The position numbers and the translations under genes are program-made. From positions 1 through 9,761 of the forward strand of contig DAOVMD010000078.1 in the NCBI GenBank assembly GCA_030630935.1: a stretch of DNA of 9,761 bases, in the 5' to 3' direction. This stretch comes from Candidatus Mcinerneyibacteriota bacterium (GTDB lineage Bacteria > AUK180 > JAQVHJ01). Position 1 is the first letter of the stretch; each line of letters opens with the position of its first letter. This document shows, piece by piece, positions 1,106 to 9,761 of the stretch. The notes beneath the pieces are model-generated. The model did not search any database and was not told the origin of the DNA. It saw only the letters and a program-made list of their open reading frames with translations.

Positions 1106-1711
1106 ATGAGAAAGCTTTTAATATTTGTTTTATTTTTATCTCTTTTAATCTCTGTTTCTTTCGCGGTTTCTGATTCGGAGCTATTTCAGAGTGCGGGAGA
1201 GAAATGGGAGCAGAACAAGTATGAGGACTGTTTAGAGATTTGTCAGCGATTCTTATCCACATACACCAATAGTGAATTTATCGATGATGTTTTATTCCTT
1301 CGTGGTAAGTGCTATTACTTTCTATGGGATAAAGAGAATGCACTTAAGAAGGAAGAGCATACTTATAAGATTGAAGATGCAGTAGAGTCTTTCCAAAATA
1401 TCATCAACGACCATAGCGATTCAGAACTATGCCCTGTTTCTTTAATGTGGATAGGTAACTGTTATTATTTCAATGAGGAATTTGACAAAGCGATTGAATC
1501 TTATGAAAAACTAATAACTGATTATCCTGAACATTCCGAGGCACAGAATGCCCGATACCGAATCGCAAAATCTTACGAAGCAAAAGGTGATCTGGAAACC
1601 GCATTAATAAATTACAAGTTCGTGGTCCGGGACTATCCTGATACCCCTGTTGCCAAGCAGGCAAAGTTCGATATAAAACGCATTGAAAAAATATTAAATG
1701 ATAATAAATAA
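1106..1711 (+). CDS. Exported tetratricopeptide-repeat (TPR) protein, BamD/CpoB-like
   Basis: A 201-residue protein. Residues 1-20 are a Sec signal peptide (MRK, a hydrophobic core, then SVSFA before the likely cleavage at Ala20). There is no lipobox cysteine, so it is predicted to be soluble in the periplasm rather than a lipoprotein. The mature part is built of TPR helix pairs, at roughly residues 24-57, 88-123, 114-147 and 150-185. Typical signatures are FDKAIESYEKLITDYPEHSEAQ and GDLETALINYKFVVRDYPDTPVA, with the DYP turn seen in the BamD (YfiO), CpoB (YbgF) and Tol-Pal-associated TPR families. Such proteins act as periplasmic scaffolds in envelope assembly or secretion. The ATG at 1106 is supported by AGGGAG five bases upstream and by the signal peptide. 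The RHS gene starts 12 bases after its stop, so the two are almost certainly co-transcribed. A scaffold or chaperone role for the RHS protein is inferred from this pairing only. Hand-counted GC over 1141-1560 is about 37%, the highest of the genes sampled. Confidence 0.85.
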   Translation: MRKLLIFVLFLSLLISVSFAVSDSELFQSAGEKWEQNKYEDCLEICQRFLSTYTNSEFIDDVLFLRGKCYYFLWDKENALKKEEHTYKIEDAVESFQNIINDHSDSELCPVSLMWIGNCYYFNEEFDKAIESYEKLITDYPEHSEAQNARYRIAKSYEAKGDLETALINYKFVVRDYPDTPVAKQAKFDIKRIEKILNDNK

Positions 1712-1723: not shown

Positions 1724-4700
1724 ATGAATAAACTAAAATTTTTAATATTTCTCTTAATTTCTTTCGTACTAATAATAGAAGGGCAGGCGACGACAGACCT
1801 GAATCAGTCTCAGGGTTTTGCTCCTAATACAAGGTTCTATTCCAGCGGAGGTGATGAGAACATAAATATTATGAACGGCAACCTGATGTTAAACTATGTT
1901 GATGCAAGCTTACCCGGCAGGAACGGTATGAGTCCTGGTGTTGGAAGAATATATAACAGTAAGATCTGGAGACCATTTAAAAAATGGGTTGAAGTTATAA
2001 GAGATGACGGTTTGAAATATTTGGTTCCAAGAGATTCTGCTTATATGATTGGGGGTAATTTTGGTACAGGTTGGAGATTAAATATACCAAGGGTAAAATT
2101 AAATACTAAGGACAATCCTTTTTTTATAAGCTTGACAACAGGTGATGGTTCAGAGCATGTGTTTGAGAAACTATCTACTGACCTCTCAATAAATAAGACC
2201 TGGCACTGGTATGGAGATACTGTTGATAGTACATTTTATAAGATAGAATTATTTAAGTTTAAAGAAACACCGGTTGAAAGAGTAAACCCCAATGTTTGGC
2301 CTAAGCAAGATTATATCTATACTGCAAGAAATGATAATAGTAAAATAATCGTCTGGGCAAAGGACGGTACAAAGTATGAAGGATATCCCGATAGACGAGA
2401 CTATGATTACGATATTGAGAATTGTTCAATTCCAATAATTTTAGATCCAATTCGCGTAAAGGAAATTTTAAGTTATATTTATCCGGATCATTCTGAATAT
2501 TCTCAAGGCTGTAATTTTCAAAAAATTGAAGATGTTAATGGGAATTTCTATACGATTAATTATTCTACTTCAGATAGTTATTCTGGTTTTATTAATTATG
2601 AAGTAAATCTTAATTCATATTTTCTAACATCTGATTTCGAAACGACAACATCACTCAATTCAGAATTTTGGACTAAATTCTTTTATGAATTAAAATATAA
2701 TATTAAAATTAATCAGACTTCAGGTGATATGGTTATTGCATCAGAATCAACTGGTCCTGTTGCTATTGTCAGATTACCTGTTAATGTTAAATACCGGTTT
2801 GGTGATTTAATAGGTATAACAGACAGTAACGGTTTTAAGGTAAATATTAACTATGTTAATATTGAAGGACAGAATGATAGAAGGTTTCATGTTGTGTCGG
2901 ATATTAATTATTTGAATTCAAATAATGAAAGAATTAAAGTTAAATATAATTACAACGAAAGATTGGTTACATTTCCAGCTGAAGGTAAATATATTGAAAA
3001 TAAGGAACACTCCATCTTTCTTGAAAAAGTAAATTATTTATTAGTTAAAGATAATGGAGAAGAAAAGGAGTTAATTAATTCTTATATTTTTGACTATAAT
3101 GAAACAGGTCATTTATGTAAAATAGTATATCCAACAAGGAATAACTTAACTGACCCTAAAAATTCAACCGAAGGTCTAATTGAGTTTAAGTATAAACCTT
3201 ATCAATCTTATATCCCTTCTTCTATACACCTTGCAAATTATAAAGCAGTAGCTTCTAAGGCTTTTGTGGAAGACGAGCAAACCGCGGTTGAGCAACCAAT
3301 ACTAAATTTACCAATATCAGCTCTTACATTTGGGGTTTCAGAGAGAACTGAAGATAAAACCAAAGTAACAAAATATTTTAGAGGAATTAAAGATAGCGTT
3401 TTACTAGGTGGTTACCCAAGAGAGGTAACTGTTGTCCATCCGGATGAGACTTATGAAATTCATAACTATTATTATGGTGGAAAAGTTGTTATAGGTTTCT
3501 ATGGTGCCTATATATCACATTGGAATTCAGGTTATGAGAAATCAGTTGAATATTACGAAGGTCCATATTCAACAGGTCCGTTTCAGACATCAAAAATCAT
3601 TCAAAAAGTTGATTTTGAATGGGATGCTCAGGTATTTAAGGATATAACCAATGATGGTGTTTATGATTTTTGTAAAAATAAAAGGTTGAAAAAGAAAACT
3701 ATTAGAAAATATCGTTATTCAGATAATGGAGTTCAGGAAAGAATTTATGAGACTGAAAATTTAAAGTATGATGAATTTGGAAATATCAAGAGAATGATAA
3801 ACAAACGTGATTTAGAAGATCCTGCAGATGATATAATTATTGTTAATCGTTATCTTCATGAAACGAAACCTGAATATATTGATAAACATATACTAAATAA
3901 GGTTTTATTGACAACTATTAAAGATACAGATGGAAACATTCTGAAGAGGACCCGGTTCAAATATGACCAGTTTATTCCTAAAAATTATGGAATAGATACT
4001 GAACAAAAGTATGAAGATGTGAATCTTGATCCTTTGAAATTAGGTGAAACATATCGCGGTAACCTGACGACATTGATTACTTATATTGCTGAACAGGATG
4101 AAGAAGGCCTATTTAACTGGGATAATGCAATTGAAGTGACTCGGTACTTTACTTATGATATATTCGGGAATCAAGTAACTTCTGTTGATCCGAAAGGAAA
4201 TCCTTCTAGAGTAACTTATGATGAAACACATAACTATGCTTTACCTGAAGAAACGATTAATGCATTAAATCATAAATCTGAAATTTCGTATTACCCCAAT
4301 ACCTATCTTGTTAAAACATCGACTGATATAAACGGTAATAATATCTTAAATGAATATGATTCGCTTGATAGGATTGTAAAAATAATTTTTCCACAGACTG
4401 CAGGGACATATACTACATTTGAATATCATGATAAGGCATTCCCCGCATATACAATTTTGAGGAATAATATTGAAGATAGTAAATTCTCAGAGAGTGTTTA
4501 TTATTTTGACGGAATGGGAAGGTTTATCTACGGCGGTGTAAAGGAAGATGTTAAGGACGGAATAGATTCCTGGGTAGTAAATGGTGTGGACTATGATCAT
4601 ATGGGGAGGAAGAATAATGTCTATGAACCACAGAAGGATTTTGGTATTAATTTTAGTGATTTCCGCGATCCGCGTGAAAATCTTGAAGACCCAAGCAAGG

Positions 4701-7381
4701 ACTTGAATTATATCAATTACGAGTATGATGTACTCGGCAGAACAAAGAAGGTTTTTATACCTGATGCAGTTCATGGTAATACTATTCCCCTGGAGATTGA
4801 ATATGAATATAATGATTACCAAAATTCGGTTAAGATAACAGATACTAAGGGTCAACCAATTAAATATTATTACAATTCACAGGATAAACTTAAGATAGTT
4901 GAAGAACTTGATGAGAACGGTTATGCTTACTCCAAAACCAGATTTAAGTATGACCTGATGGGTAATATGACAGAAATGCGAACAAGCAAAGACGGTCGAA
5001 ACTGGATGGTCTCAAAATATACTTATGATTCGGAAAGGAGACTAGTTAAATCAGTTTTACCTGACAGCGGTGAATCAACTTTTATTTATGATTTAAATGG
5101 AAACTTAACGCAAAGGACAGATGCAAAAGGGATTACAATTAAGTATTATTATGATAAGCTTAACCGTCAAACGAAGATTGAATATCCTGATAGTAGTTAT
5201 ATCCAATATGAATATGATAATCTTGCAATCCCCAATGGTAAAGGTAAGTTATATTCAAAGCGAAAATATCAAGCTGGTGAAGGTATTGTCAGTGAAAACT
5301 TGTTCTCTGATTTCGATGATCTGGATAGACTTTTAGAGAAAAAAGAATTTATCAACTTTGAAGGTCATAATCCTGTCCAGGTAAATCATAACTATTCATA
5401 TAACAAAGCAGGATTTATGCTTTTTCATGATATCTCAGTCAACGGTCAGGAGATTCAAAAGATGGAGTATGACTACGACCTCATGGGTAGAGCAGATGTT
5501 TTATTTGAAACTGTGATGGGTGATTTGACAACGAAGACTGAGATAGCACGGATCCGTAACTTTAATCCTTTAGGTATGGTAGAAGATATTGAGTATGCAA
5601 ATAATATTCATGTTCAATATAAATATAATGAATACCGTCACTGGATGGAGGAGATGGACATATCTATAGAAGAGGATAATGGTTCAGGTGATACTTATAA
5701 AAATTCAATATTCCATAATCAGTATCTCTATGATGTAGTTGGCAATAGGACAAAGTTAATCGATGAATCGGGTATAGAGACCACATATAATTATGATTCA
5801 CTCTATCGGTTAACCAATGTTAATGGTAAGTATTATAACAAGGAAGGTCAGACTAAGGGAAGCAAATATACTTATGATCAAGTTGGTAACCGTTTGACTT
5901 ATAACAGTAAATATGGTAAAATTACTTATGAGTATGATGAAAGTTCAAATAGGCTAAATCGAGTTAATTTTAATAGAGAGAATGATGATTTAAGTTATAT
6001 GCTTATTAATTATGATGCAAATGGAAATACGAAACAACGAGATTATTTCAGGAGTAAGGATGAGATATTTGAACAGGAACTTTATGAATATAACTATGAC
6101 AATATGATGACACATTATGTCAGACCCAAACCTGTTATGAAGAATAATCGAATTGAGATGGAAGTTGAGTCGGAACTAAATATGGAATATGATGTTAACG
6201 GAATACGCATAATCAAGAAATGTTATCCCAATACAAGTGATTCTACTATCTATATCTATGAAGGTGGAGAGGTCGTTTTAGAAATAACATACGAACAGAT
6301 TCCAAAGAACAAGTACCTGTTCACGTATGCTGGTGGGAAGAAAGTCAGTAGAACCTCCTTTAATATAGATGGTACAATTGATCTTGATTCGAGAAAGTAT
6401 TTTCATCAAAACTTCTTGGGTTCAATTGCTATGATTACTGATAAAGACGGAAACATTGAAGAACACAATAAATACGAACCATTCGGGGATATTCTCTGGT
6501 CAAAGAGTTATATCGATACAGATAATGATTATAAGTTCACGGGAAAAAAAAGAGATAAAGAAAGTAATCTGGATTATTTTAATGCACGTTATTTAGATAC
6601 AAAACTTGGAAGATTTATGAAAGTGGATGTAGTTACAGGAAATGTCAAGAATCCACAGACACTAAACAGATGGGTGTATGTATTAAATAATCCTTTAAGA
6701 TATATTGATATATTAGGTTTATATGAAGAAATAGTTGTATCTGGAGGTCCTTCAATAAAATCTATTGAACAAAATAAGCAACATGATCAGTATTGGGGTA
6801 ATTTCTATTCTTCAGCCAAAATCATAATAAAAAATTTAAAGAAATCTTTAAAGGAAGGTGATGAGATAACTTGGCTTGTATATAGACCTGGATTTGAAGC
6901 AAGAGGTAAAGAGGATGAAAATGATAAAGATTATTATATTAAAAAAATCGAAAAAGCTAAAAAAGAATTTGGAGAGAGCGTTAATTTAGTATGGTTTAAT
7001 AGCAAAGATGAATTTATTAAATATATGAATGAAGGTAAAATTGAAGAACATGATGAGGGTAAAGATAGGTCAAAAGAAGAAAACAAAATAAATGTATTTT
7101 ATTATTTTGGACATGGAACAGACGCATTGTATTTTGAGTTTGGTACAAAAAAGAAAGGAGTTTCTACAGATTGTTTATATCCAGATGATTTAAAATTGAT
7201 TGAAAAAGATATCTTTGCAAAAAATACTTATGCAAAAGGTTATGGTTGTTTTGGTGCTCCAGTATTTTCAGAAGCTTGGGAGGAACATTTTGGTTTAAAA
7301 TATCATGGTGTTAAAGGAAGAGTAACATATTATAGACGTGATAAACTTCCTAAATTAAGTCCAGGTGCAGAATGGAACTAA
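1724..7381 (+). CDS. Giant Sec-exported RHS/YD-repeat protein with a C-terminal caspase-like tip (putative polymorphic toxin)
   Basis: A 1885-residue protein. Residues 1 to ~22 are a signal peptide (lysines, then a hydrophobic core, EGQA before likely cleavage). Residues ~40-680 form the N-terminal shell region, starting with the GDENINIMNGNLML / LPGRNGM signature common at the N-terminus of exported RHS proteins. Residues ~680-1500 carry about 18 YD-type repeats, from YDEFGN (Tyr682) to YDVNGIR (Tyr1489), with clear examples such as YDLMGN, YDLNGN, YDVVGNRT and YDQVGNRLTY. Residues ~1559-1666 are the RHS-associated core: YFHQNFLGS, YEPFGDI, FTGKKRD, NARYLDTKLGRF (from Asn1620) and NRWVYVLNNPLRYIDILGL (1648-1666). 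RHS cores of this kind form a hollow shell that holds a C-terminal toxin. There is no PAAR or VgrG-like N-terminus, so Sec export is more likely than type VI delivery. Residues 1667-1885 are the variable tip, described separately. Odd points: both conserved Asp-Pro sites of the core have lost proline (VDVV at 1634-1637, DILGL at 1662-1666), and no immunity gene follows. Hand-counted GC is about 34% over 4921-5340. The RHS assignment is certain; a toxin role is inferred. Confidence 0.9.
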   Translation: MNKLKFLIFLLISFVLIIEGQATTDLNQSQGFAPNTRFYSSGGDENINIMNGNLMLNYVDASLPGRNGMSPGVGRIYNSKIWRPFKKWVEVIRDDGLKYLVPRDSAYMIGGNFGTGWRLNIPRVKLNTKDNPFFISLTTGDGSEHVFEKLSTDLSINKTWHWYGDTVDSTFYKIELFKFKETPVERVNPNVWPKQDYIYTARNDNSKIIVWAKDGTKYEGYPDRRDYDYDIENCSIPIILDPIRVKEILSYIYPDHSEYSQGCNFQKIEDVNGNFYTINYSTSDSYSGFINYEVNLNSYFLTSDFETTTSLNSEFWTKFFYELKYNIKINQTSGDMVIASESTGPVAIVRLPVNVKYRFGDLIGITDSNGFKVNINYVNIEGQNDRRFHVVSDINYLNSNNERIKVKYNYNERLVTFPAEGKYIENKEHSIFLEKVNYLLVKDNGEEKELINSYIFDYNETGHLCKIVYPTRNNLTDPKNSTEGLIEFKYKPYQSYIPSSIHLANYKAVASKAFVEDEQTAVEQPILNLPISALTFGVSERTEDKTKVTKYFRGIKDSVLLGGYPREVTVVHPDETYEIHNYYYGGKVVIGFYGAYISHWNSGYEKSVEYYEGPYSTGPFQTSKIIQKVDFEWDAQVFKDITNDGVYDFCKNKRLKKKTIRKYRYSDNGVQERIYETENLKYDEFGNIKRMINKRDLEDPADDIIIVNRYLHETKPEYIDKHILNKVLLTTIKDTDGNILKRTRFKYDQFIPKNYGIDTEQKYEDVNLDPLKLGETYRGNLTTLITYIAEQDEEGLFNWDNAIEVTRYFTYDIFGNQVTSVDPKGNPSRVTYDETHNYALPEETINALNHKSEISYYPNTYLVKTSTDINGNNILNEYDSLDRIVKIIFPQTAGTYTTFEYHDKAFPAYTILRNNIEDSKFSESVYYFDGMGRFIYGGVKEDVKDGIDSWVVNGVDYDHMGRKNNVYEPQKDFGINFSDFRDPRENLEDPSKDLNYINYEYDVLGRTKKVFIPDAVHGNTIPLEIEYEYNDYQNSVKITDTKGQPIKYYYNSQDKLKIVEELDENGYAYSKTRFKYDLMGNMTEMRTSKDGRNWMVSKYTYDSERRLVKSVLPDSGESTFIYDLNGNLTQRTDAKGITIKYYYDKLNRQTKIEYPDSSYIQYEYDNLAIPNGKGKLYSKRKYQAGEGIVSENLFSDFDDLDRLLEKKEFINFEGHNPVQVNHNYSYNKAGFMLFHDISVNGQEIQKMEYDYDLMGRADVLFETVMGDLTTKTEIARIRNFNPLGMVEDIEYANNIHVQYKYNEYRHWMEEMDISIEEDNGSGDTYKNSIFHNQYLYDVVGNRTKLIDESGIETTYNYDSLYRLTNVNGKYYNKEGQTKGSKYTYDQVGNRLTYNSKYGKITYEYDESSNRLNRVNFNRENDDLSYMLINYDANGNTKQRDYFRSKDEIFEQELYEYNYDNMMTHYVRPKPVMKNNRIEMEVESELNMEYDVNGIRIIKKCYPNTSDSTIYIYEGGEVVLEITYEQIPKNKYLFTYAGGKKVSRTSFNIDGTIDLDSRKYFHQNFLGSIAMITDKDGNIEEHNKYEPFGDILWSKSYIDTDNDYKFTGKKRDKESNLDYFNARYLDTKLGRFMKVDVVTGNVKNPQTLNRWVYVLNNPLRYIDILGLYEEIVVSGGPSIKSIEQNKQHDQYWGNFYSSAKIIIKNLKKSLKEGDEITWLVYRPGFEARGKEDENDKDYYIKKIEKAKKEFGESVNLVWFNSKDEFIKYMNEGKIEEHDEGKDRSKEENKINVFYYFGHGTDALYFEFGTKKKGVSTDCLYPDDLKLIEKDIFAKNTYAKGYGCFGAPVFSEAWEEHFGLKYHGVKGRVTYYRRDKLPKLSPGAEWN
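6398..6721 (+). other. RHS-repeat-associated core domain (within the large RHS protein)
   Basis: Residues 1559-1666 match the hallmark RHS core seen just before toxin tips: YFHQNFLGS, a YEPFG element, a FTGK(K/R) element, an NARY-D-LGRF element and a final NxxVYVLNNPLxYxD-GL element. In canonical RHS proteins the end reads PxxxxDPxGL and is where the shell's aspartyl-type self-cleavage frees the tip. Here Pro1657 and Asp1662 are kept, but the residue after Asp is Ile1663. The earlier Asp-Pro after GRF is also changed (Asp1635-Val1636). Confidence 0.85.
6722..7378 (+). other. Variable RHS tip, probable caspase-like (clan CD) cysteine peptidase
   Basis: These are residues 1667-1885, directly after the RHS core. 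The pattern alternates strands and helices: EEIVVSGG, a helix around 1692-1707, ITWLVYRPG, a charged helix, VNLVWFNS, INVFYYFGHG, YAKGYGC, FSEAWEEHFG, HGVKGRVTYYR. Two sites match the catalytic dyad of clan CD peptidases (caspase, gingipain, CHAT-like): His1797 after a hydrophobic strand in YYFGHG, and Cys1842 after the next core strand in KGYGC, 45 residues later, with a following FSEAW helix. This is the strand-GHG / strand-C order expected of the fold. The region is more AT-rich than the shell (hand count 6781-7200: 114 of 420 bases G or C, against 142 of 420 in 4921-5340), as expected of an exchangeable tip. Substrate and target cell are unknown. An inactive caspase-like domain is also possible. 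Confidence 0.6.
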
Positions 7382-7467
7382 ATATAATAAATCAAGAATG
7401 GTTTCAATTTATCTTCGATATAATAATGATTTATATAATATTAATAAGTAAAAAGTAAGGTGTTATT
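7382..7467. other. 86-base AT-rich spacer between the RHS gene and the LVIVD gene
   Basis: The spacer has no hairpin followed by a T-run, so there is no clear terminator after the RHS gene and read-through is possible. TATAAT words occur at 7419-7424 and 7434-7439, but neither has a good -35 box at normal spacing. TAAGG (7456-7460), seven bases before the ATG at 7468, is the likely ribosome binding site. There is no room for an immunity gene. Confidence 0.55.
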
Positions 7468-9345
7468 ATGAAAAAGTATGATATAGTTTTTTTGGGAATT
7501 ATAATAGTTAATATGTTTTTTATTTTAATAAATTGTTATTCAGATTCGTTAAATGTTGAATTAGTTGGAAGAATGAAAAGTGGAATACCTCAAGATGTAT
7601 TTGTTGATGGAAATTATGCATATGTTGCAGCATATCGTCTAATTTATATATTCGATATATCAAGCAAAAAAAATCCCAAAGAAATTGGATATTGTGAAAT
7701 AACTTATCAAGCAAATAGAGTCTATGTCTTAAAGAATTATGCTTATATTGTAGGAGGGAATTTTTTAACAATAGTAGATATATCAAATAAAACTAAACCT
7801 TTTCAAGTTGGATTATGTAAGTTACCGGATTCTGCAAATGATATTTATGTATTAGGCAATTATGCCTATGTAGCCGATAGTTTTAAAGGATTAAGAATAA
7901 TAGATATCTCTAAACCTAAAACACCAAAGGAAATAGGTCATTATAATACTAATGGTGATTCAAAAGGTATTTATATCTCTGGAAATTATGCATATCTCGT
8001 GGATAACCAGTCTAGTTTAAGAATAATAGATATTTCTATTCCTAAGTCACCAAAAGAGGTGGGGTTTTATTATGATACTGATTGTTCTTATCAAGATATT
8101 TTTGTTAAAGAACACTATGCTTATATTGCTGGAGGTTTATCAGGTTTAAGAGTAATAGATGTTTCTATACCTGAGAAGCCAAAAGAAGTTGGATATTATA
8201 AAACTCCTACAGGACCTTCGACAAATATATTTATTTCAGAAAAGTTCGCCTATATTTTAGTTGATTTTGTAGGTTTGAAAATAATAAATATTTCTGATCC
8301 TGAATCACCGAAAGAGATAGGTTTTTTAAAAGTAAGTTGTTCAGACTACTCAGAAGCAAAAGTCGGTTTATTTGTGTCAGGTAATTATGTATATACTACT
8401 GAAAGCAATGAGGGCTCATTAAACATAATAGACATTTCTGATCCAGCCAATCCTAAACAGAATTTTTTCTATACATTTATTGATTTTAATGATATTTATA
8501 TATCAGGCAATTATGCATATATTGCAGCGGGAATTACAGGTTTAGTTATAGCAGATATTTCTAATCCGAAATTACCGAAAAAAATATGTTCAATTAAAAC
8601 TCCAAATTATGCTTCAGGTGTTTATGTTTCCGGAGATTATGCATATGTCACAGACGAAAAGTTCGGTTTAATAATAATAGATGTATCAAATCCTAAAATA
8701 CCAAAAGAAATTGGCTTTTATAAAATGTTTTCGAGAGCTGACCATATTTATGTCTCGGATAATTATGCATATATTGGAGCTCATGATTCCGGGTTAAGAA
8801 TAATAGATGTATCAAATCCTAAAAAACCTAAAGAAGTAGGATTTTATATTAAAGATAATAATGGTGATCGATGTTATGCAACTGGAGTTTATGTTTCCGG
8901 AGATTATGCATATGTTAATGACTATGATGGCATATTAAGAATATTGGATATATCAAACCCGACATCTCTCGAGAATGTAGGTTCTTGTGGAATACACGGA
9001 AATGCAATAAATATTTTTGTTTCAGGTAATTATGCATATATTGCTTCAGGAGTTTTAAGAATAATAGAAATATCTAATCCTAAAAAGCCTAAAGAAATAA
9101 GTTGTTTAGATGATGATAAATATAATAATATTATTGATATTTTTATAAAAGATAATATTGCTTATATTTTGGACTATCCATCAGGATTAAGAATAATAGA
9201 TGTATCAAATCCTAAACAACCTAAAGAAGTAGGATATTATGATACACCAGGTAATGCTAATAGTGTTTTTGTATCAGGTAAATATATTTATGTTGGAGAT
9301 AATGGCTCTGGTTTATGGATATTACAATTAAATAAAAGGAAGTAG
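7468..9345 (+). CDS. LVIVD-repeat beta-propeller protein, probable lipoprotein
   Basis: A 625-residue protein. Residues 1-23 are a lipoprotein-like signal (MKKYD, a hydrophobic core, then LINC with Cys23). Asn at -1 is not the textbook residue, so lipidation is probable, not certain. From about residue 40 to the end there are 14 repeats of ~41-47 residues. Each has a (I/V)(Y/F)(V/I)SGNYAY(V/I) strand pair, then GLRIIDISNPKxPKE(V/I)G, which is the LVIVD repeat family. LVIVD proteins are taken to fold as beta-propellers at the cell surface and have no enzymatic residues. The last repeat stops after LWILQL, while the N-terminus begins with an unpaired VELVGRMKSG strand matching the PKEVG part of the unit. 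That suggests circular 'velcro' closure, and 14 blades would suit two seven-bladed propellers. TAAGG seven bases before the ATG supports the start. Hand-counted GC over 8641-9060 is about 31%. It lies where an immunity gene would normally follow an RHS tip, but size, signal and repeats argue for a surface partner, adhesin or anchor; this is inference. Confidence 0.85.
   Translation: MKKYDIVFLGIIIVNMFFILINCYSDSLNVELVGRMKSGIPQDVFVDGNYAYVAAYRLIYIFDISSKKNPKEIGYCEITYQANRVYVLKNYAYIVGGNFLTIVDISNKTKPFQVGLCKLPDSANDIYVLGNYAYVADSFKGLRIIDISKPKTPKEIGHYNTNGDSKGIYISGNYAYLVDNQSSLRIIDISIPKSPKEVGFYYDTDCSYQDIFVKEHYAYIAGGLSGLRVIDVSIPEKPKEVGYYKTPTGPSTNIFISEKFAYILVDFVGLKIINISDPESPKEIGFLKVSCSDYSEAKVGLFVSGNYVYTTESNEGSLNIIDISDPANPKQNFFYTFIDFNDIYISGNYAYIAAGITGLVIADISNPKLPKKICSIKTPNYASGVYVSGDYAYVTDEKFGLIIIDVSNPKIPKEIGFYKMFSRADHIYVSDNYAYIGAHDSGLRIIDVSNPKKPKEVGFYIKDNNGDRCYATGVYVSGDYAYVNDYDGILRILDISNPTSLENVGSCGIHGNAINIFVSGNYAYIASGVLRIIEISNPKKPKEISCLDDDKYNNIIDIFIKDNIAYILDYPSGLRIIDVSNPKQPKEVGYYDTPGNANSVFVSGKYIYVGDNGSGLWILQLNKRK
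8620..8915 (+). repeat. 29-base exact direct repeat in the LVIVD gene
   Basis: The same 29 bases occur at 8620-8648 and 8887-8915, starting GTTTATGTTTCCGGAG and ending TGCATATGT, and encode the VYVSGDYAYV strand pair of repeats 9 and 11. Exact identity, including silent positions, points to recent duplication or gene conversion between blades. Confidence 0.75.
8794..9235 (+). repeat. 48-base near-exact direct repeat in the LVIVD gene
   Basis: Positions 8794-8841 and 9187-9234 differ at a single base (A at 8824, C at 9217; Lys against Gln). They encode LRIIDVSNPKxPKEVG of repeats 10 and 13. Near-identity at silent sites indicates recent copying or conversion, whereas the 5' repeats have diverged. 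Confidence 0.75.
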
Positions 9346-9436: not shown

Positions 9437-9761
9437 ATGTTATTATACTTAATTTTAAAAATTATGAATGCAGCAATTAACCAAGAATTTATAGAGTCAT
9501 CATATACAGTTGACAGCACATATTTTATGATTGAATTAAAGAAGGACGATTTTGAGATAAAAGAGAAACATGATGGTAGAAAGATGATATTCCCTAAACA
9601 GACTTATCTTTATTTCCCGAAGAATGATGATAGTAAAATCTCTATTTATACAAAAGACGGTACAATGTTTGAAGCTTTTCCTAACAGGAAACAGACGATA
9701 TATGATACTCCGAGTATTACAGTAGAGAATTATTCAGACTGGACAGATGCCCAGGTTGAAG
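9437..9761 (+). CDS. RHS-family fragment lacking the usual N-terminus, running off the window (partial, possibly a pseudogene)
   Basis: The frame opens after a TAA at 9431-9433 and stays open to the window end. ATG codons lie at 9437 and 9464. Neither has a good Shine-Dalgarno; AGGA at 9421-9424 is 12 bases before the first. From about base 9476 the product resembles residues ~155-230 of the large RHS protein: VDSTYFMIEL against VDSTFYKIEL, FPKQTYLYFPKNDDSKI against WPKQDYIYTARNDNSKI, and KDGTMFEAFPNR against KDGTKYEGYPDR. Roughly half the residues match in the best block. The signal peptide and the first ~150 residues of the family, with the NGNLML and LPGR signatures, are absent. It is either a 5'-truncated RHS paralogue left by recombination or a real gene with a short, different N-terminus. 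After the matching block (DTPSITVENYSDW) the two proteins diverge. Confidence 0.65.
   Translation, partial: MLLYLILKIMNAAINQEFIESSYTVDSTYFMIELKKDDFEIKEKHDGRKMIFPKQTYLYFPKNDDSKISIYTKDGTMFEAFPNRKQTIYDTPSITVENYSDWTDAQVE

What the first reader, a model, noticed from the sequence alone, without database searches (positions are those of the whole stretch)
6722..7378. RHS tip that looks like a caspase-like cysteine peptidase toxin
Directly seen: a 219-residue tip after the RHS core, with His1797 in YYFGHG and Cys1842 in KGYGC, 45 residues apart, each at the end of a hydrophobic strand, followed by FSEAWEEHFG and GVKGRVTYY. Established: clan CD peptidases (caspases, gingipains, CHAT) place His after one core strand and Cys after the next, and protease tips are known among polymorphic toxins. 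Inferred: this is a proteolytic RHS effector rather than one of the commoner nuclease or ADP-ribosyl types.
Basis: partly seen in the sequence, partly recalled or inferred. Interest (0 to 1): 0.72.

Follow-up and report, generated by a model that had tools for sequence, protein, structure and literature searches.

The report
Probable caspase-like protease tip on RHS
The end of this large exported bacterial RHS protein carries the His...Cys signature of caspase-type cysteine proteases and is probably a protein-cutting weapon tip, a divergent example of a kind of toxin domain predicted in 2012; its fold is not proven.

Summary
ORF 1724-7381 (1885 aa) is an exported RHS protein. Its last 219 residues have His1797 (VFYYFGHG) and Cys1842 (KGYGC), 45 residues apart. 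The caspase/clan CD reading is partly supported. For: in 3,807 background ORFs (521,000 aa) the HG-x(35-55)-YGC signature occurs only in eight DUF4347 domains and this tip, and strand-GHG occurs in 23 bacterial caspases, this tip and one other ORF. Three other RHS tips with the same layout, aligned with this one, match DUF4347 His-on-His and Cys-on-Cys (hhalign 88%; 0 of 200 motif-preserving shuffles reach it). A DUF4347 effector has a solved structure (9QPE) whose His/Cys pair overlays a clan CD toxin protease (PMC13323088). Against: the tip alone has no significant similarity to any family or protein searched, the profile link does not depend on it, and both single-sequence AlphaFold models are poor (pLDDT 45, 42). 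The setting is classic polymorphic toxin: near-constant RHS cores, unrelated tips, an envelope-anchored gene after the tips examined. Caspase-like RHS toxin tips were already predicted in 2012 (PMC3482391), so this is a new, very divergent member of a known kind.

The parts
1724..7381 (+). RHS protein, 1885 aa, with a hydrophobic N-terminal signal-like stretch (MNKLKFLIFLLISFVLIIEGQA) and a DUF6531-like N-terminal part
   Evidence: ORF; RHS_repeat PF05593 E 1.1e-19, DUF6531 21.5 bits, just under cut-off; Rhs_assc_core and YD repeats; signal peptide read from the sequence only
6473..6721 (+). RHS-associated core domain ending in NRWVYVLNNPLRYIDILGL, the junction with the tip
   Evidence: TIGR03696 residues 1584-1666, E 1.7e-16; same coordinates
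6722..7378 (+). variable C-terminal tip, 219 aa; putative caspase-like (clan CD) cysteine peptidase; GC falls to 26% at 6901-7500 against about 32% in the core
   Evidence: GC; no family hit on its own
7094..7117 (+). strand plus His motif VFYYFGHG; His1797 codon 7112-7114; putative catalytic His
   Evidence: same motif type in 23 C14 caspases
7235..7249 (+). Cys motif KGYGC; Cys1842 codon 7247-7249; putative nucleophile. Ala three residues after Cys is also invariant in the DUF4347 set
7265..7333 (+). predicted helix FSEAWEEHFG and following strand(s) KYHGVKGRVTYY after the Cys
   Evidence: low-confidence secondary structure
7468..9345 (+). 625-aa lipoprotein-like protein (lipobox LINC) made of 14 LVIVD beta-propeller repeats; next gene after the tip (86-base gap); candidate immunity or partner protein, unproven
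   Evidence: LVIVD E 6.5e-128; choice-of-anchor B; position only for the immunity role
9437..9760 (+). RHS remnant, 38% identical to RHS residues 155-236, without its N-terminus

Best explanation
The tip is a divergent caspase-like (clan CD) cysteine peptidase domain forming the variable C-terminal effector of a polymorphic, Sec-exported RHS protein. Inferred mechanism: the RHS shell is exported to or beyond the envelope and the tip is released at the core/tip junction. The released tip folds with His1797 after one core strand and Cys1842 after the next. Cys1842, activated by His1797, cleaves target proteins of a neighbouring cell, probably in or via the envelope, because the genes after the tips in this genome are lipoproteins or membrane-anchored. 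Shown: RHS architecture, tip polymorphism, His/Cys motifs, group-level profile match to DUF4347. Inferred: fold, catalysis, release, target, and the LVIVD lipoprotein as immunity partner.
For: The motifs match clan CD families and are otherwise nearly absent from 521,000 aa of background ORFs. Tip alone against C14: 0 of 100 full shuffles and 0 of 100 other RHS tips score as high, aligned on FYYFGHG. Four RHS tips with this layout (A2; invariant H, G, C, G) against DUF4347: hhalign 88%, E 3e-6, dyad on dyad; the best of 200 motif-fixed shuffles reaches 47%. An HMM of the three other tips, without this one, recovers DUF4347 members at ranks 4, 6, 7, 8 and 11 of 3,807 ORFs. A solved DUF4347 effector, 9QPE, is the best PDB hit for DUF4347; its paper overlays its His/Cys dyad on a clan CD toxin protease and shows active-site-dependent yeast toxicity for a sister effector (PMC13323088). 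Single-sequence models put strands before the His and alternate strands and helices. Zhang 2012 lists Tox-Caspase as C-terminal toxin and releasing domain with RHS repeats.
Against: Removing this tip leaves the DUF4347 match unchanged (87.0%), so the group link does not prove the tip belongs. Alone it scores 0.3% against DUF4347 and 1.3% against the combined profile; 15 of 100 motif-fixed shuffles equal it for the combined profile and 49 of 100 for C14, and HMM ranks are 57-118 with E 20-140. AlphaFold pLDDT 45 and 42, no usable fold match. The tip seems to have one more strand-helix unit before the His than the other tips, and a weakly hydrophobic strand before Cys. In my small alignments DUF4347 does not link to C14 or CHAT by sequence.
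Confidence: 0.72

Rival explanations
1. The caspase-like domain is mainly an auto-processing (releasing) peptidase that cuts the RHS protein at the core/tip junction, not a toxin.
For: Zhang 2012 says most caspase-like domains in polymorphic toxins are releasing peptidases.
Against: Releasing domains sit upstream of another toxin domain; here nothing follows the domain before the stop codon. Zhang reads C-terminal-most versions as toxins. RHS cores usually self-cleave by their own core motif (established knowledge).
Confidence: 0.1
2. The tip is a non-proteolytic toxin of another fold, for example an ADP-ribosyltransferase using the H-G-T of GHGT, or a Rossmann-type enzyme; the His/Cys pairing is coincidence.
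For: No significant family match on its own; HGT also occurs in some ADP-ribosyltransferases (established knowledge).
Against: Only 88 residues follow the His, too short for the His-to-Glu span of known ADP-ribosyltransferases (about 125; established knowledge). Strand-GHG with YGC at this spacing is specific in the background set.
Confidence: 0.12
3. The tip has a caspase-like sheet but is a Tox-HDC-like thiol peptidase or transglutaminase using a His-Asp-Cys triad.
For: Tox-HDC has H, D/N and C at the ends of successive strands of a caspase/flavodoxin-like sheet and occurs with RHS.
Against: No Tox-HDC model was available to test. The described SGxH signature is not GHG, and its spread is given as proteobacteria and phages.
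Confidence: 0.06

Closest known systems
Tox-Caspase domains of polymorphic toxins (Zhang et al. 2012, PMC3482391)
   Same: C-terminal position in RHS proteins, His then Cys, predicted toxin
   Different: No detectable sequence match could be shown to any published member; the immunity protein listed there (Imm36) is not what follows here
DUF4347 (PF14252), including the effector Tce1 (PDB 9QPE chain G, PMC13323088)
   Same: H-G...Y-G-C-x-x-A with nearly the same spacing (43 and 45 residues); group-level profile match 88%
   Different: The tip alone is below any threshold; DUF4347 hits here lie in large ORFs of 351-4650 aa and Tce1 is Hcp-delivered, not RHS-borne
Bacterial caspases and metacaspases, Peptidase_C14 (PF00656)
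   Same: Hydrophobic strand ending in [FY]-Y-x-G-H-G
   Different: Cys motif is GYGCFGA, not the DAC-type motif seen in the C14 set; no significant profile match
RHS tips L083, L133 and L143 (three unrelated genomes)
   Same: RHS core, then strand-H-G/A, then a second strand ending in G/S-C; L083 ends in a similar ...YSPGA...
   Different: 16-21% identity in the aligned core, mostly fewer strands before the His

Membership tests
Polymorphic RHS toxin | RHS repeats and an RHS-associated core directly before a C-terminal tip | tested here: met
Polymorphic RHS toxin | Conserved core with unrelated tips in the same genome | tested here: met
   Cores 83-87% identical to two C164 RHS ends and 67% to C102; this tip matches none of the others
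Polymorphic RHS toxin | Cognate immunity gene next to the tip | tested here: inconclusive
   LVIVD lipoprotein follows; LVIVD proteins are widespread in other settings
Clan CD (caspase-like) cysteine peptidases | His at the end of a core strand (GHG), then Cys after the next strand | tested here: met
   Sequence and motif comparison; the strands themselves are only predicted
Clan CD (caspase-like) cysteine peptidases | Caspase/hemoglobinase alpha/beta/alpha fold | tested here: inconclusive
   pLDDT 45 and 42; fold comparison uninformative
Clan CD (caspase-like) cysteine peptidases | Significant profile similarity to a clan CD family (C14, CHAT) | tested here: inconclusive
   hhalign 2.6% against C14 and 0.9% against CHAT; hmmsearch E 20 against C14
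Clan CD (caspase-like) cysteine peptidases | Cys-dependent proteolysis | not testable with these tools
   needs an experiment
DUF4347 (PF14252) | Pfam gathering score | tested here: not met
   no hit; not filed as a DUF4347 member
DUF4347 (PF14252) | Invariant H-G ... Y-G-C-x-x-A at 43-45 residue spacing | tested here: met
Tox-HDC | SGxH, D/N and C motifs on successive strands | not tested
   no model available; described in PMC3482391

The most novel reading that the evidence does not exclude
A caspase-like RHS protease tip that acts in or through the envelope, neutralised in the producer by the adjacent LVIVD beta-propeller lipoprotein (and, for the second candidate tip in the same genome, by an anchored WG-repeat protein): repeat-propeller proteins as immunity proteins against caspase-like toxins.
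Probability: 0.15. Interest if true: 0.55.

Novelty: new member of a known kind. Interest (0 to 1): 0.36.

Why it matters
Caspase-like tips of RHS proteins were predicted in 2012, but I found no experimental study of one in the papers searched. A compact example with clear candidate catalytic residues from a sparsely sampled phylum would extend the range of the kind and give a simple two-mutant test. If the neighbouring envelope lipoprotein protects against it, that would be a new class of immunity protein.

Tried and rejected
Direct homologue searches of the tip in GTDB contigs, viral contigs, phages, plasmids and 386 sampled genomes found nothing (the single weak hit in G380 covers only the charged N-terminal half). 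Pfam, NCBIfam, PADLOC and PHROGs gave nothing for the tip. Two AlphaFold jobs without an alignment failed to give a usable model; VIA-align rows were all weak and unrelated, and no clan CD entry was listed. An HMM search of 386 genomes with the four-tip alignment returned only the four members and borderline chance hits; the one read through, L167, is an unrelated enzyme. The PDB hits of that alignment (proteinaceous RNase P) are chance. MAFFT misaligned the full-length tips, so only the His-to-end part was used. Own-genome tip L006 (EHSG...LGC) looks similar by eye but gives no hhalign match. Papain-like folds were rejected because their order is Cys then His.

Full report
What is there. The window is G000:C156:1-9761 of a 3.16-Mb, 80%-complete genome in 471 contigs; its phylum holds only seven genomes in the collection. 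ORF 1724-7381 encodes an 1885-residue RHS protein with a signal-like N-terminus. The RHS-associated core ends at residue 1666 (NNPLRYIDILGL). The remaining 219 residues are the tip, with His1797 in VFYYFGHG and Cys1842 in KGYGCFGA.

Polymorphic design. RHS cores elsewhere in the genome are very similar to this one (83-87% identity for the two C164 ends, 67% for C102), but their tips share nothing with this one. In C102 and C164, as in the window, the tip is followed by a membrane-anchored or lipoprotein-like ORF and then RHS remnants. Here that ORF is a 14-repeat LVIVD beta-propeller with a lipobox, followed by an RHS remnant. GC drops to about 26% over the tip. This is the layout of a recombining toxin-tip cassette; that reading is inference from known RHS systems.

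No direct homologues. The tip has no relative in any collection searched and no family match. To find comparable tips I took RHS-core positions in the 119 RHS-bearing genomes among 386 sampled, fetched the listed places and scanned the tips. Three from unrelated genomes share the His...Cys layout: L083, L133 and L143. The own-genome tip L006 looks similar by eye.

Clan CD test, group level. Aligning the His-to-end parts of the four tips gives four invariant residues: H, G, C and G. This profile matches DUF4347 at 88% probability, E 3e-6, with His on His and Cys on Cys. Because the tips were chosen by motif, I shuffled everything except the motif residues; none of 200 shuffles reached 88% and the best was 47%. 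An HMM from the three other tips alone also retrieves DUF4347 members. DUF4347 in turn has a solved member, 9QPE chain G. Its paper (PMC13323088) reports that the His/Cys pair of this effector superposes on the catalytic dyad of a clan CD toxin protease, and that a sister effector is toxic to yeast only with its active site intact.

Clan CD test, this tip alone. Without this tip the group match is unchanged (87%), so the match is not evidence for the tip itself. Alone it aligns in the correct register with DUF4347 and with the C14 His motif, beating all full shuffles and all other RHS tips for C14. But motif-preserving shuffles do as well in 49 of 100 trials for C14 and 15 of 100 for the combined profile, so nearly all the signal is in the motifs. 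The motifs are specific, however: in 3,807 ORFs, HG-x(35-55)-YGC occurs in eight DUF4347 domains and this tip only, and strand-GHG in 23 C14 caspases, this tip and one other ORF. The patterns were chosen after the fact, so this is useful but informal evidence.

Fold. Two single-sequence AlphaFold runs gave pLDDT 45 and 42. Both show alternating strands and helices with a strand ending just before the His motif and a helix after the Cys, but they cannot decide the fold.

Conclusion. The most likely reading is a divergent caspase-like cysteine peptidase tip (0.72). Zhang et al. 2012 already predicted such C-terminal domains with RHS repeats, so it is a new member of a known kind. What is new is its extreme divergence and the possible pairing with an LVIVD lipoprotein, which rests on position alone.

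Noticed in passing
L006 1738-2478 (own genome, contig C102; also L052): Second RHS tip in the same genome with a strand-EHSG ... LKILMVLGC layout, followed by a membrane-anchored WG-repeat protein; possible second caspase-like tip, but no profile match.
   Followed up: partly
L053 3-1460 (own genome, contig C164): RHS tip with a metallopeptidase-like HELGH motif, followed by a membrane protein and then an orphan RHS core with a different tip.
   Followed up: no
window 9437-9760 and L053 4939-5439: N-terminally truncated RHS remnants matching the same part of the RHS protein, each directly after a lipoprotein-like ORF, suggesting a recurrent cassette structure.
   Followed up: partly
window 1106-1711: Signal-bearing TPR protein (TPR_6, YfiO-like) directly upstream of the RHS gene.
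   Followed up: no
G003 contigs C71, C86, C159: A related genome of the same class holds 27 RHS core copies, many in tandem with different short tips.
   Followed up: no
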